Assembly (NCBI GenBank): GCA_025141675.1
Contig: CP081161.1
Coordinates: forward strand, 2,082,001 to 2,146,000
Source: Rhodobacteraceae bacterium S2214
GTDB taxonomy: Bacteria; Pseudomonadota; Alphaproteobacteria; Rhodobacterales; Rhodobacteraceae
DNA length: 64,000 nucleotides
Direction of reading: 5' to 3'
Below the pieces are notes generated by a model. The model was not told the DNA's origin and made no database searches. It saw nothing but the letters and a program-made list of their open reading frames with translations. The first letter of the stretch is position 1, and each line of letters begins with the position of its first letter. Of this stretch, positions 8,609 through 30,640 are shown piece by piece. The translations under genes were made by a program, and so were the position numbers.

Positions 8609-8750
8609 TTGTCATGTTTTGCGTGCGTTGTCGGGTGTTTGAGCAACATTTTCCAATCTCACGGTCACAAAATGATACAGTAATTCCGCCTGTTGATCTT
8701 GCGCTTGGTGGATCAAAGCCCCATATCTAAGATGTCTCTTCGGGGACTAT

Positions 8751-9058
8751 GGATATAAACGAGCGTGTTATTAGCTGGGCCGGACCGGGGTGCGACTCCC
8801 CGCAGCTCCACCAAAAATCCTTTCATTTGAAGGACTATGGGGCTGAATTAGGATCGACGGACTGTGAACGGGCGTGTCTTTATCTCGGTGAGTTACCACC
8901 GATATCGGTACAAACTGTACAATTGCAAATGACAATCGTGCTCCGATGGCGATGGCTGCGTAAGCAGTCCTAACTATCGAAACTTAACTCCCTAGGATTA
9001 GCGTCTTAGGGCGGGGTTCGCAGGTACCTGGCAACAGAAACCTGCACTTACACCCTAC
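8751..9058 (+). ncRNA. ssrA: tmRNA, permuted two-piece type (ssrA)
   Basis: Rescues stalled ribosomes. The gene is circularly permuted, as known for alphaproteobacteria: the acceptor piece comes first (about 8751-8813), with T arm CGGGG-TGCGACT-CCCCG and 3' end CAGCTCCACCA. After a 25-nt spacer comes the coding piece, starting at 8839 with GGGGCTGAATTAGGATCGAC, the usual tmRNA 5' sequence. GGGGCTG pairs with CAGCTCC to form the tRNA-like acceptor stem. Bases 8752-8765 can largely pair with about 8873-8886, as expected of helix P2. The tag frame is at 8925-8963. The 3' end near 9058 is approximate and touches the stop of the next gene; a GCAGG/CCTGC hairpin lies near it. Confidence 0.93.
8925..8963 (+). 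other. tmRNA proteolysis-tag reading frame
   Basis: Resume codon GCA at 8925, then codons for ANDNRAPMAMAA and stop TAA at 8961-8963. The ANDN start and the hydrophobic AA end match alphaproteobacterial tags (compare, from memory, ANDNRAPVALAA in Rhodobacter). The two Met residues replace Val/Leu positions. The AMAA end is the expected recognition site for ClpXP-type proteases. Confidence 0.93.
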
Positions 9059-25731: not shown

Positions 25732-26462
25732 CGACGACGCCGTTGTACCTTGAAGACGCTTATCGCCGCGAAGCCGCGACGCGTGTGACCCAAATCACGG
25801 ATGAAGGCGGCATTGTCCTGGATGCGTCCTTGTTTTACCCGACTTCAGGTGGCCAACCCGGTGATAGCGGTGTTGTCCGTTGGGGGCTTGCCGAAGACGA
25901 AAACGCGATTGAAATTGCAACGACCGTCAAAGGGTCCGATGGTCAAATCGTACTTGTGCCAGCTGAACCGTCCGCTTTGCCACCAGAGGGCACGTTGGTC
26001 AGACAGGAAATCGCGTGGGATCGCCGTTACAAACATATGCGGGTGCACACGGCACTTCATCTGCTGTCGGTTGTCATTCCCTTGCCCGTGACAGGCGGGT
26101 CCATTTCGCCGGACAAAGGGCGTTTGGACTTTGATATGCCAGAAGCGCCAGAAGATCGCGAAGAGATCGAAAAGACACTCAATATGTTGATCGACTGTGA
26201 TTTCGCCGTGAACGAAGAATGGATCACGGACGCCGAAATGGATGCCAACCCCGGGCTCGTGAAAACGCTTCGTGTGAAACCACCGCGCGGGACTGGACGT
26301 GTGCGGTTGGTGCGGATTGGCGTTGGTGATGATACGGCTGATCTGCAACCTTGCGGCGGTACACATGTATCGCGAACATCGGAAATTGGACGCGTGCGGC
26401 TTGGCAAAATCGAAAAGAAGGGCAAACAGAACCGCCGGGTCTATTTGCACCTCGACACGTGA
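25728..26462 (+). CDS. Alanyl-tRNA editing protein (AlaX)
   Basis: 244 aa stand-alone editing domain related to the AlaRS editing module; it removes Ser or Gly from tRNA-Ala. Zinc-site motifs are HTALH (HxxxH) around residues 106-110 and CGGTH near 205-209; FYPTSGGQPGDSG at the start is a family hallmark. It overlaps its upstream and downstream neighbours by 4 nt each. Function follows from the family; nothing in the sequence suggests loss. Confidence 0.95.
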   Translation: MTTTPLYLEDAYRREAATRVTQITDEGGIVLDASLFYPTSGGQPGDSGVVRWGLAEDENAIEIATTVKGSDGQIVLVPAEPSALPPEGTLVRQEIAWDRRYKHMRVHTALHLLSVVIPLPVTGGSISPDKGRLDFDMPEAPEDREEIEKTLNMLIDCDFAVNEEWITDAEMDANPGLVKTLRVKPPRGTGRVRLVRIGVGDDTADLQPCGGTHVSRTSEIGRVRLGKIEKKGKQNRRVYLHLDT

Positions 26463-27079
26463 TCCGGTCAGCGATCTTTCTTGGTGCTGCTATCACTGTA
26501 TTTGCCGCGACACCCGCCGCCGCCCAAACATTCGAGGGCTGCACAAAGGCGGAACGTGGGATCATCATTGCAGCACTGGATCGGTCGAAACGGCTAGTCC
26601 TCACGGCAGCGACCGCGGTTGGTCCAACGCCGGTTTACACAAGGTGGTTTGGCAAGTTTAGTCCGCGCAACGGCGATTTAGTTCGGCGGAACCTCAAAGC
26701 GGTCGTGTCAGCAGTCCGGACCGGTCAAGTAAGTGCAGTCTGTGTCAATCACGGTATCGGCCTTTGTGATCAGGACACCTATGCCTTCGTCGATCCTGAC
26801 GAACACTACGAAGTGAAGCTGTGCCCGAGCTTTTTCCAGATGCAAACGATGAAAGAACTCGACGACGAAAGCGCGGCTGCGGGGAATGGAACGCGGGCAG
26901 GGACCCTTATCCACGAAATCACGCACTTCACAGTCGTCGCCGGAACCGATGATATCTGCTATTCGCGCGAAGTCTGTACTGAAATGGCGATTGATGCGCC
27001 CCAAGATGCGTTGATCAACGCTGATAGCTATCAGTACTTCGTTGAGGATGTGACGTTTTATGGGGTCGAAGGCGAATGA
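26459..27079 (+). CDS. Secreted M35-type (aspzincin) metalloprotease
   Basis: 206 aa from GTG 26459, which overlaps the alaX stop (GTGA). A Sec signal peptide ends near AAAQ at residue 23. Zinc motif HEITH lies at 152-156 and GTDDICYSR at 162-170 supplies the Asp zinc ligand that defines aspzincins (family M35, deuterolysin or peptidyl-Lys type). Several Cys pairs suggest disulfides, so it acts in the periplasm or outside the cell. The N-terminal extension in the open frame before 26459 overlaps alaX and is not used. Confidence 0.85.
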   Translation: MIRSAIFLGAAITVFAATPAAAQTFEGCTKAERGIIIAALDRSKRLVLTAATAVGPTPVYTRWFGKFSPRNGDLVRRNLKAVVSAVRTGQVSAVCVNHGIGLCDQDTYAFVDPDEHYEVKLCPSFFQMQTMKELDDESAAAGNGTRAGTLIHEITHFTVVAGTDDICYSREVCTEMAIDAPQDALINADSYQYFVEDVTFYGVEGE

Positions 27080-28723: not shown

Positions 28724-28813
28724 GGACAGGTGGCCGAGTGGTCGAAGGCGCACGCCTGGAAAGTGTGTAGGCGGGAGACCGTCTCCAGGGTTCGAATCCC
28801 TGTCTGTCCGCCA
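28724..28813 (+). tRNA. tRNA-Ser (anticodon GGA)
   Basis: A 90-nt class II tRNA with CCA encoded. Acceptor GGACAGG pairs with TCTGTCC (one G-T), the anticodon loop is CTGGAAA (anticodon GGA), a long variable arm GGCGGGAGACCGTCTC follows, and the T arm is CAGGG-TTCGAAT-CCCTG. It lies upstream of the cyclase-like gene; I saw no copy of its 3' end further on that would mark an integrated island. Confidence 0.96.
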
Positions 28814-28856
28814 CTCCCCATCCACAACAATTTCCATAGCTTGATTTTTTCGACAG

Positions 28857-28894
28857 TTGGACTGAACGAGCTCATTTTCGAGTCTTCAGTTCAA
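28857..28894. repeat. Inverted repeat before the cyclase-like gene
   Basis: TTGGACTGAA (28857-28866) and TTCAGTTCAA (28885-28894) pair over ten positions with a single G-T. The repeat lies in the AT-rich 164-nt gap between tRNA-Ser and the gene at 28978. It may be an operator or an RNA stem-loop in the leader. Confidence 0.5.
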
Positions 28895-28977
28895 GGTATC
28901 GTGCGCGTTTACAGAAATTACGTGACCTGTCCTCTGAAACCTGTCAGCCATTTTGTATTTAGTTCGGGGGATTAGAG

Positions 28978-29952
28978 ATGAACGATACGATTAAAGGCAG
29001 CAACAACATGCAGGCGGACTTGATCCAGTTTGCACGGCGCCTGTTGGAAGAGCAGGGCCAGGAAGTGAGCGGTCAGTCCGACAAGCAGATTAAATCGATG
29101 TTGGATCAGATACCTCGTAATGATCAGATCAAACTGCTTGCAATGCGCTCTGCATACCGGCTTGCAGGCGGAACGATCGAAGGAACCCAAACGCTGGCGC
29201 AGCAGCAGGCAGGTGTTGGTGTTGTGACCGCCGATCCTGCTGCAATGGCTCGGACAATCCGAATGATTGTCAAAAACTTTGACCATTCGACGCCAGACGA
29301 CGGCAGTGTCTTTTGGACAGGCGTGGACCGCAACAAGCTTCGGTACCTGATCTCGACGTGGAACAAACAACATCCGACGAAGATGTTTGGCCAGCTTGAA
29401 GCGACAACAGATACGCGTTTTATGGATGGCGTTTTAGGAGGCGACTGGAATACGGGGGGCGGCAAGACCTATTTTGACGCTGCGTCCGCGGCTTTGGGGC
29501 GCGGTGCGACCGGCCACGTGACCAGCGTACAAATGTACGGTTTGCAATCATCGCCCGATAAAATTTTCACCAATGTCGAACTGCCAGCGCTTCTCAAGTC
29601 CATGGACGATGATCTCGCGAACAACAAACAGCCCAAAATTACGAACCTGTCCATCATCGTCATCAATCCAATTGGATATCCCGAAACTTGCCGTACGTTC
29701 ACGAACCTACAGATTTGTAGTATCAACTTGATCAAGAATATTGGGGGCAAGGCGCAGATCTATAATGCGTCTCAAGGGGCTGCCGCAGGGAAAGTTGGGC
29801 TGCATGGTCCAACACGCATTCCCGATCGCGTGCGTCACTATTGGCTGCAAAAATATCCGGTGCCAGTCAGCGCGACCGCACAGACGATTGCGCAAAACAT
29901 TGCATCAATCCTGTATGGGCCTGACCGGTTTGATTTTAATAAGCAGCTCTGA
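28978..29952 (+). CDS. Putative ADP-ribosyl cyclase/NAD glycohydrolase, CD38/Aplysia-cyclase-like
   Basis: 324 aa; ATG 28978 follows CGGGGGATTAGAG. Residues 1-105 are helical and unrecognised. From 110 on, motif order follows Aplysia cyclase and CD38 as I recall them: FWTG (112-115; Aplysia FWSG), LEATTD (140-145; TLEDT), a Trp at W157 near the LVWCG position, YFDAASAAL (165-173; FWGMASSSY, with the Trp replaced by Phe), VTSVQMYGL, then TNVELPALL (198-206; GKYELPNL) where E201 would be the catalytic Glu, SIIVIN (225-230; KVIVLH) and a final Cys region. Most vertebrate disulfide cysteines are absent. No signal peptide is evident. If right, it would consume NAD to make (c)ADPR and nicotinamide. 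No partner gene is next to it. Recognition is by eye only. Confidence 0.62.
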   Translation: MNDTIKGSNNMQADLIQFARRLLEEQGQEVSGQSDKQIKSMLDQIPRNDQIKLLAMRSAYRLAGGTIEGTQTLAQQQAGVGVVTADPAAMARTIRMIVKNFDHSTPDDGSVFWTGVDRNKLRYLISTWNKQHPTKMFGQLEATTDTRFMDGVLGGDWNTGGGKTYFDAASAALGRGATGHVTSVQMYGLQSSPDKIFTNVELPALLKSMDDDLANNKQPKITNLSIIVINPIGYPETCRTFTNLQICSINLIKNIGGKAQIYNASQGAAAGKVGLHGPTRIPDRVRHYWLQKYPVPVSATAQTIAQNIASILYGPDRFDFNKQL

Positions 29953-29970
29953 ATAATCCGTGACCTTGTC

Positions 29971-29998
29971 GCGTGTCGGCTTTGTGCCAACGACACGC
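29971..29998. repeat. Stem-loop downstream of the cyclase-like gene
   Basis: GCGTGTCG (29971-29978) and CGACACGC (29991-29998) form a perfect 8-bp stem that can extend by an inner GC/GC pair. It lies 18 nt after the stop codon and has no T-run, so it is a weak or Rho-assisted terminator, or an mRNA-stabilising hairpin. The rest of 29999-30089 holds nothing I can identify. Confidence 0.5.
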
Positions 29999-30089
29999 AA
30001 TGGGTCATGCTTGGGAGTGCGATGCGCTAGTCGAGTCGTTTGCTACCTTGGCGGGTCTGATTTGACCTGGCGAAAATTCTGCCCGCATC

Positions 30090-30114
30090 AAAAAAGGGCC
30101 GGCGAAGCCGACCC
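30090..30114 (-). terminator. Intrinsic terminator of ssb
   Basis: Read on the minus strand: GGGTCGGC-TTC-GCCGGCCC stem-loop followed by TTTTTT, 11 nt after the ssb stop codon. Confidence 0.9.
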
Positions 30115-30124
30115 CTGATATTTT

Positions 30125-30640
30125 TTAGAACGGGATTTCATCGTCCAGGTCGGACCGGCTACTGCCGCCGCCACCTGAATCGCGACCGCCACCGCTTGGG
30201 CCGCTGTCATACCCGCCGCCACTACCACCGCCGTAGCCGCCGCTGTCACCACCGTAGCCGCCACCACCGCCGCCGCCTTGGCTGTCGCCACGGCCGTCAA
30301 GCATCGTCAGCACGCCGCCAAAACCTTGCAGAACAACTTCTGTCGAATATTTGTCCTGACCGGACTGGTCCTGCCATTTACGTGTTTGCAAAGCGCCTTC
30401 GATGTACACTTTGGAACCCTTGCGCAGGTACTGCTCTGCGATACGGACAAGGCCGTCGTTGAAAATCGCGACCGAATGCCATTCCGTCTTTTCGCGGCGT
30501 TCGCCTGTGTTTTTGTCTTTCCAAGTCTCAGAGGTCGCGATGCGCAAGTTGCACACCTTTCCGCCATTCTGAAACGAACGGACTTCAGGGTCGCGGCCCA
30601 GATTCCCAATCAAGATAACTTTGTTGACCGATCCAGCCAT
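30125..30640 (-). CDS. ssb: Single-stranded DNA-binding protein
   Basis: 171 aa from ATG 30640, with GGGGAG upstream; the open frame further up is not conserved. An N-terminal OB fold ([41 protein letters not shown]) is followed by a long glycine/serine/tyrosine-rich linker from about residue 118 and the acidic tip DLDDEIPF that binds partner proteins of replication and repair. The Gly-rich linker explains the repetitive CCGCC-like DNA at 30170-30290. Confidence 0.97.

What the first reader, a model, noticed from the sequence alone, without database searches (positions are those of the whole stretch)
28978..29952. Bacterial CD38/ADP-ribosyl-cyclase-like protein as a single gene after tRNA-Ser
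In one 324-aa protein the motifs FWTG (112), LEATTD (140), a Trp near the second motif (157), YFDAASAAL (165), TNVELPALL (198), SIIVIN (225) and a Cys-containing helix follow the order found in Aplysia cyclase and CD38, with E201 at the place of the catalytic Glu. One active-site Trp appears as Phe, and most disulfide cysteines are gone, fitting a cytosolic protein. Such NAD-consuming folds are known in bacterial toxins; as a stand-alone chromosomal gene with no partner it could be a defence effector, a signalling enzyme making cADPR, or a toxin. The homology was judged by eye from remembered sequences.
Basis: partly seen in the sequence, partly recalled or inferred. Interest (0 to 1): 0.85.

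Follow-up and report, generated by a model that had tools for sequence, protein, structure and literature searches.

The report
Orphan bacterial CD38-like NAD-cutting protein
A single bacterial gene of unknown function looks like a very diverged relative of the human enzyme CD38, which cuts the cofactor NAD, and it seems to stand alone without the protective partner gene that related bacterial toxins usually have.

Summary
The homology, judged by eye, holds at sequence level. The top phmmer hit in the PDB is Tac1 (9OUF), a bacterial ADP-ribosyl cyclase (ARC) toxin: weak (E 1.1), but it registers E141, F166 and E201 on Tac1 E516, W540 and E573. An ARC profile built without this protein finds only this ORF in its genome at E<=10 (E 0.005), and 0 of 20000 shuffles score as high (1, 2 or 8 do with narrower row sets). 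AlphaFold2 failed (pLDDT 37.5, 34.7), so the fold is untested; Pfam's CD38 model does not match.
It is an orphan: protein searches of 56 genus and 394 family genomes gave only the own gene and two weak matches. It sits at a synteny breakpoint between tRNA-Ser and ssb. No immunity gene, delivery domain or defence neighbour was recognised; the genome has a T6SS gene. E141 suggests NAD(P)+ hydrolysis rather than cADPR release. Bacterial ARCs (Tac1, ARCtox, non-toxic Nac1) were published in 2025 and Tox-ARC in 2012, so this is a diverged stand-alone variant of a known kind. Its role is undecided.

The parts
28978..29952 (+). 324-aa ORF, diverged ADP-ribosyl cyclase-superfamily protein (P0001)
28978..29235 (+). 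N-terminal extension (residues 1-86, boundary my choice), no family match; low-confidence helices in AF2
29311..29322 (+). FWTG (112-115), counterpart of FFWSG in bacterial ARC toxins; W113
   Evidence: alignments; position
29395..29412 (+). LEATTD (140-145); E141 in register with Tac1 E516 / CD38 E146
   Evidence: not in register
29473..29475 (+). F166, where Tac1 has W540 and ARCtox W323
29476..29601 (+). C-lobe core (residues 167-208), the stretch matched by ARC profiles
29578..29580 (+). E201, in register with catalytic Tac1 E573 / CD38 E226
28724..28813 (+). tRNA-Ser(gga), left border of the 1.3-kb unique segment
30125..30640 (-). ssb, right border; synteny with two relatives resumes at 30124

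Best explanation
The ORF encodes a strongly diverged, stand-alone member of the ADP-ribosyl cyclase (ARC/CD38) superfamily that breaks the nicotinamide-ribose bond of NAD(P)+. Residues W113, E141, W157, F166 and E201 would line the cleft; E201 would be the essential catalytic Glu, and E141 would push the reaction to linear ADP-ribose rather than released cADPR. Shown here: sequence-level similarity above background and register of E141, F166 and E201. Inferred: fold, activity and product. Role (inferred, weak): an enzyme that acts inside its own cell and is kept weak or silent until triggered (Nac-like or regulated), about 45%; a secreted effector, for instance through a T6SS of this genome, about 25%; an anti-phage or stress NADase, about 15%; other, 15%. 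The confidence below is for the ARC-superfamily NAD(P)-cleaving identity, not for a role.
For: phmmer against 177635 PDB sequences gives two hits at E<=10; the first is 9ouf_A, 133-209 against 65-138, E 1.1. 9OUF is Tac1. That alignment pairs E141 with E516, F166 with W540, E201 with E573 (numbers counted by me along the alignment). An ARC profile of 7 rows without P0001 (A6), run on the own genome in six frames, scored 16 candidates and gives one match at E<=10: this ORF, E 0.0051, 17.8 bits. The same profile locally ranks P0001 first of 3032 sequences (2000 shuffles, the reversed sequence, 1030 other ORFs and itself). 0 of 20000 shuffles reach it without L012. A profile of 13 ARC rows gives 20.1 bits, E 4.3e-4, best of 20000 shuffles 11.0. 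Upstream, an ordered pair xW[ST]G ... xE.[TSL] occurs in 153 of 300000 shuffles of residues 1-166 (pattern chosen after seeing the protein). Nearest relative seen is a Hint-bearing ARC frame in the same family, L092: 42% over 50 aa, 33.1 bits. Profile A1 (with P0001) also draws ARCtox, Tac1, Aplysia cyclase, BST-1, RDTND and CD38 from the PDB. Product: Tac1 E516A releases cADPR, Nac1 with Ala there makes cADPR. No immunity gene recognised: no Imm74 in the genome at E<=1, and the only ORF of 60 aa or more on the + strand in the spacers starts inside the tRNA gene (28730-28975).
Against: No match in Pfam, NCBIfam or PADLOC at E<=10, although other bacterial ARCs also stay under the Pfam cut-off. 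The PDB hit is weak and a beta-hexosaminidase fragment scores about equally. With the five toxin rows 1 of 20000 shuffles scores as high, with the three alphaproteobacterial stand-alone rows 8, with six divergent rows 2. hhalign against A3 gives only 7.7%. The HMMER match covers about 42-52 residues. Both structure predictions failed. E141 is in register with the second active-site Glu and (five toxin rows) 127, but not, nor in the two-sequence and fragment alignments with L057. One active-site Trp is Phe; alanine there cuts activity in Tac1 and abolishes toxicity in ARCtox.
Confidence: 0.78

Rival explanations
1. It is a secreted effector (T6SS or other) that depletes NAD(P)+ in competitors or eukaryotic hosts, and needs an activating factor in the target, as the MARTX domain RDTND needs RID and calmodulin.
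For: The genome carries a T6SS sheath gene VipB, E 2.8e-119, on contig C5, in a run of frames that look like T6SS genes by eye. The published bacterial ARCs are mostly delivered toxins. RDTND shows that an ARC domain can stay silent until activated in the host. ARC domains sit in longer frames of two other genera of the family, one with Hint modules.
Against: No delivery domain matched, no signal-like hydrophobic stretch (max 19-residue Kyte-Doolittle mean 1.1), no immunity gene recognised beside it, and VipB is on another contig.
Confidence: 0.25
2. It is an anti-phage or stress NADase that empties the NAD pool of its own cell.
For: NAD depletion is a common end point of abortive infection (established knowledge, recalled); a stand-alone orphan at a variable site fits a defence gene.
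Against: No PADLOC match for the protein; of 10 neighbours only miaA has one, at 17.7 bits; no sensor domain recognised.
Confidence: 0.15
3. The resemblance is chance or convergence of short motifs, and the protein is an unrelated orphan.
For: Weak scores, short matched stretch, no structure, no close homologue.
Against: A profile built without it picks this ORF alone from the genome; shuffle controls; three functionally named residues fall in register in a motif-blind alignment.
Confidence: 0.15
4. It is a decaying or inactive ARC, left from a polymorphic toxin cassette after rearrangement.
For: Lies at a synteny breakpoint; F in place of the Trp; no immunity gene recognised.
Against: Intact 324-codon frame, normal codon usage, E201 and apparently E141 kept although the rest has diverged far.
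Confidence: 0.12

Closest known systems
Tac1 (toxic ADP-ribosyl cyclase, Streptococcus parasanguinis LXG toxin; PDB 9OUF; PMC12356396)
   Same: Both active-site glutamates in register (E141/E516, E201/E573); C-lobe motif (F/W)xxAS...G.(V/I)...P..I(F/W).N.ELP
   Different: No LXG domain matched, no Imm74 in the genome; F166 for W540; 86 residues before and about 90 after the aligned core; sequence similarity at the noise limit
Nac1 (non-toxic ADP-ribosyl cyclase, Actinophytocola oryzae; PMC12356396)
   Same: Stand-alone gene, no immunity or toxin system recognised
   Different: Nac1 has Ala for the second Glu and a predicted signal peptide; here Glu seems kept and no signal-like segment is seen. 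Nac1's sequence was not compared
ARCtox of Pantoea ananatis (PANA_2924; PDB 9RO8; PMC12605009)
   Same: W273, E299 and E356 correspond to W113, E141 and E201 (profile register, counted by me)
   Different: W323 is F166; no PAAR domain matched; no immunity gene recognised
Stand-alone ARCs of about 150 aa in another family of the same class (L004, L088, L089)
   Same: Stand-alone frames; F rather than W before the catalytic Glu; colinear 30.4-bit blastp match to L089 over both lobes
   Different: Half the size; Tyr where W113 lies; two of the three sit directly behind a clpB-type gene
RDTND of a MARTX toxin (PDB 8K9Z; PMC11266601)
   Same: CD38-like NADase domain, drawn by the same profile (E 0.014)
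   Different: Part of a giant toxin; shown to need RID and calmodulin, whereas any activation is unknown here

Membership tests
ADP-ribosyl cyclase (ARC/CD38) superfamily | Sequence similarity to ARC domains above background | tested here: met
   weaker with narrow row sets (1, 8 and 2 of 20000 shuffles score as high)
ADP-ribosyl cyclase (ARC/CD38) superfamily | Catalytic Glu (CD38 E226, Tac1 E573) | tested here: met
   E201; Glu in that column in 14 of 14 sequences
ADP-ribosyl cyclase (ARC/CD38) superfamily | Second active-site acid (CD38 E146, Tac1 E516) | tested here: inconclusive
   E141 in register and, with the five toxin rows, 127; not nor in the alignments with L057 alone
ADP-ribosyl cyclase (ARC/CD38) superfamily | Active-site tryptophans | tested here: inconclusive
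   W113 present (Trp in 6 and Tyr in 8 of 14 rows); F166 where the other 13 rows have Trp; W157 two residues off the toxin Trp. A conservative change, not a loss
ADP-ribosyl cyclase (ARC/CD38) superfamily | Two-lobe CD38 fold | tested here: inconclusive
   AlphaFold2 pLDDT 37.5 and 34.7; fold search not run on such models
ADP-ribosyl cyclase (ARC/CD38) superfamily | Match to Pfam PF02267 (diagnostic, not defining: the Tac1 piece and the bacterial ARCs L004, L007 and L054 also stay under its cut-off) | tested here: not met
   no family at E<=10
ADP-ribosyl cyclase (ARC/CD38) superfamily | Cleavage of NAD(P)+ | not testable with these tools
   Needs purified protein
ARC polymorphic toxins (Tac1, ARCtox, Tox-ARC) | Fusion to a delivery domain or place in a secretion cluster | tested here: not met
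   No domain by Pfam or NCBIfam; none of 10 neighbours scanned matches a secretion-system family
ARC polymorphic toxins (Tac1, ARCtox, Tox-ARC) | Adjacent immunity gene | tested here: not met
   No Imm74 in the genome at E<=1; no ORF of 60 aa or more on the + strand between the ORF and ssb except one overlapping its end (29741-29956), and upstream only a frame that starts inside the tRNA gene. An unrelated immunity fold in a shorter or antisense frame is not excluded
Non-toxic ARCs (Nac) | Stand-alone, no immunity | tested here: met
   with the limit just named
Non-toxic ARCs (Nac) | Loss of the second Glu, cADPR as product (Nac1) | tested here: inconclusive
   E141 seems kept; product not testable here
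Known anti-phage defence systems | Match to a PADLOC model or defence neighbours | tested here: not met
   (one 17.7-bit match of miaA to mad8, taken as chance)

The most novel reading that the evidence does not exclude
A CD38-type NAD(P)ase with toxin-like glutamates lives in the cytoplasm without any immunity protein, held silent by its own N-terminal extension until a signal releases it: a self-contained, autoinhibited bacterial ARC switch for NAD depletion or ADP-ribose signalling, unlike the immunity-bound toxins and the weak secreted cyclase known so far.
Probability: 0.18. Interest if true: 0.75.

Novelty: new variant of a known kind. Interest (0 to 1): 0.45.

Why it matters
If active, the protein shows how far the CD38 fold has spread and diverged in bacteria beyond what Pfam can see, and it raises a sharp question: how does a cell tolerate a potential NAD(P)+ destroyer without a recognisable immunity protein. 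Stand-alone bacterial ARCs are candidates for natural bacterial cADPR or ADP-ribose signalling (the suggestion made for Nac1), and this protein and the clpB-linked group found on the way are concrete genes on which to test that.

Tried and rejected
Direct relatives: none confirmed in genome contigs by two scans (13 and 46 stretches matched a pattern) or in viral contigs with the protein and with A1 (1 and 21 stretches); these scans see only contigs that carry one of the exact peptide patterns. No match in plasmids or phages. G068 (E 0.0098) looks like chance: it lies among unrelated long frames. G416 (E 0.08) was not examined. Fold search was not run, since a low-confidence model gives meaningless matches. 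No copy of the tRNA end (att site) was found elsewhere in the window, so tRNA-targeted integration is not supported. tRNA-Ser as an operon partner was rejected: tRNA-Ser with the AI-2E transporter gene lies away from ssb in 6 of 6 relatives tested, without the ORF. Foreign origin by composition is not supported: GC 0.52 (lowest of 15 genes, 0.52-0.58), GC3 0.59 and codon score are like the neighbours, though the upstream spacer is only 44% GC. A literature search for ARC with Rhodobacteraceae or Roseobacter found 2459 papers with two of five terms; none of the 12 listed holds an ARC term.

L012, L088, L089, L090, L091, L092 and L093 were fetched with profile A1, which contains P0001, so tests that use them are not fully independent; a profile of five toxin rows plus L004, without P0001 and without them, scores each of them (E 2.3e-16 to 5.4e-5). 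The test includes L012; without L012 the shuffle result stands (0 of 20000), but the whole-genome test was not repeated without it.

Full report
Observation. The ORF at 28978-29952 (+) encodes 324 residues, and the motifs lie at the stated residues. It looks coding by codon preference. It appears as a single gene: tRNA-Ser at 28724-28813, 164 bases of spacer, the ORF, 172 bases, then ssb on the other strand at 30125-30640. On the + strand the only other listed frames of 60 aa or more there are one that starts inside the tRNA gene (28730-28975) and one that overlaps the end of the ORF (29741-29956). Neighbours matched in Pfam are an AI-2E family transporter, an M35-type metallopeptidase, a tRNA_SAD protein, an MscS-type channel, a GGACT-NUDIX protein, ssb, a lytic transglycosylase, an AraC-type regulator and miaA; one of the 10 scanned has no match.

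What it resembles. Pfam, NCBIfam and PADLOC give no match at E<=10, PHROGs one match of 0.37 that I take as chance. phmmer against 177635 distinct PDB sequences gives two hits, E 1.1 and 1.3. The first, 9ouf_A, is called Ribonuclease in the PDB copy, but it is the structure of Tac1, a bacterial ADP-ribosyl cyclase toxin. The alignment knows nothing of active sites, yet sets E141 on E516, F166 on W540 and E201 on E573, residues that Colautti and colleagues mutated (numbers counted by me along the alignment). W157 falls two residues from the nearest Tac1 Trp. With the fragment 105-281 the two hits change places (E 0.68 and 0.72); the fragment 157-267 has none.

Independent profile test. From ARC domains found through Tac1 or Pfam PF02267 plus L012, I built A6, seven rows without the window protein. 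Run on the whole own genome in six frames it scored 16 candidates and gives one match at E<=10: this ORF, E 0.0051. Locally it ranks first of 3032 sequences. Against 20000 shuffles: none reaches it with 6 or 7 rows, one does with the five toxin rows; none with 11 rows, 8 with the three alphaproteobacterial stand-alone rows, 2 with six divergent rows; none with 13 rows (20.1 against 11.0 bits) or with 8 divergent rows (17.3 against 7.8). hhalign of the single sequence gives probability 68% against A6 and 7.7% against A3. The HMMER matches cover residues 157-208 at most. Upstream, the ordered motif pair is found in 153 of 300000 shuffles, with a pattern chosen after the fact. E141 is in register with the toxin Glu, not nor in alignments with L057 alone. 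blastp to L089 is colinear over both lobes, 104-210 against 23-130, 30.4 bits. The nearest relative seen is the ARC part of L092, 42% over 50 residues, a frame that also matches PF02267 (just under its cut-off) and Hint modules. The profile with P0001 draws ARCtox, Tac1, Aplysia cyclase (E 0.0011), BST-1, RDTND and CD38 from the PDB. I put ARC membership at about 0.8-0.85.

Structure. Single-sequence AlphaFold2 gave mean pLDDT 37.5, and a core construct with pieces of one viral-collection ARC gave 34.7.

Distribution and site. Protein search: the own genome and one chance-looking match in 394 family genomes at E<=0.01; the own genome and one unexamined match of E 0.08 in 56 genus genomes. Profile A1, at E<=0.01 and own genome included each time: 3 of 398 phylum genomes, 6 of 385 class genomes, 3 of 311 family genomes. 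Of the nine other matches I take eight (L012, L087 which is the same gene as L004, L088, L089, L090, L091, L092, L093) as ARC-like and one (L013) as chance; none is close to P0001. In the two relatives nearest by ssb sequence, synteny on the ssb side begins at 30124, while tRNA-Ser with the AI-2E transporter gene lies elsewhere, as in 6 of 6 relatives searched; in G438 other genes follow it. Of 30 ssb loci scanned (30 of the 55 genus genomes with a match), only the own one has a tRNA in the fetched stretch. So the ORF fills a 1.3-kb segment at a rearrangement breakpoint. No copy of the tRNA end was found.

Mechanism. In Tac1 the Glu equivalent to CD38 E226 is essential, and the one equivalent to E146 favours hydrolysis over cADPR release; with its loss, or the Ala of Nac1, cADPR is released. 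ARCtox needs two Glu and two Trp. The window protein appears to keep both Glu and one of those Trp and has Phe for the other, so I predict NAD(P)+ hydrolysis to ADP-ribose, perhaps slower than in the toxins. This is inference. A free CD38-type NADase would be expected to harm its own cell: even most weakened Tac1 variants stay toxic in E. coli. Yet no immunity gene is recognised, and there is no Imm74 in the genome at E<=1. Either the activity is low, as may hold for Nac1, which could be purified from E. coli without immunity, or it is held back, by the unassigned N-terminal 86 residues or by need of a partner as in RDTND, or the protein acts elsewhere. The genome has a T6SS sheath gene. I favour an intracellular, weak or regulated enzyme, without strong evidence.

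Known or new. Tox-ARC was described in 2012 (PMC3482391, passages seen; a 2022 survey of NAD systems in viruses, PMC9503650, passages). Tac1 and Nac1 (PMC12356396; abstract, start of the introduction, Results, Discussion and one methods section read) and ARCtox (PMC12605009; abstract, start of the introduction, two Results sections and Discussion read) followed in 2025. says ARC-like domains are exclusively associated with secretion-targeting or surface domains, against which Nac1, the group L004, L088, L089 and this ORF stand. RDTND: passages of PMC11266601. So the kind is known; the stand-alone form with toxin-like glutamates, its own extensions and no close relative found is a variant. Four literature searches on bacterial ARC enzymes (listings only, the last showing 12 of 2459) showed no paper that I recognised as describing this protein.

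A side result: two stand-alone ARC frames (L088, L089; one genus) start inside or directly behind the end of a clpB-type gene, and a third (L004) lies behind a HAD-like gene by eye.

Noticed in passing
L088:1459-1917 and L089:1492-1938 (-): Stand-alone ARC frames of about 150 aa directly behind a clpB-type gene in two genomes of one genus: an ARC neighbourhood without a recognised toxin system that might point to a stress role.
   Followed up: partly
L092:1-1977 (-): ARC domain together with Hint/pretoxin-Hint modules in a large frame (3095 aa open in the genome) of another genus of the same family; nearest relative of the window protein seen.
   Followed up: partly
L090, L091, L012, L093: Divergent ARC-like segments inside long frames with Tyr for the first Trp and, in some, Asn or Asp in the place of the second Glu by eye; PF02267 matches only L093 of the four, under its cut-off.
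   Followed up: partly
L009:2911-3186: Unannotated 92-residue ARC-like frame on a Paraburkholderia plasmid about 2.8 kb before a filamentous-hemagglutinin-type gene, perhaps an orphan toxin tip.
   Followed up: no
L086 (contig C5 of the own genome): VipB T6SS sheath gene (E 2.8e-119) in a run of T6SS-like frames, by eye, on a 78-kb contig.
   Followed up: partly
window 28814-30124: Synteny breakpoint between tRNA-Ser and ssb relative to the two nearest relatives tested.
   Followed up: partly
PDB 9ouf: The PDB copy names the Tac1 ADP-ribosyl cyclase chain 'Ribonuclease', which hides the relation from name-based readers.
   Followed up: yes
window 26429-27076: M35-type (Aspzincin) metallo-endopeptidase, PF14521 E 8.9e-31.
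   Followed up: no
window 8721-9054: tmRNA marked with an asterisk by ARAGORN, probably the two-piece permuted form (meaning of the mark recalled).
   Followed up: no
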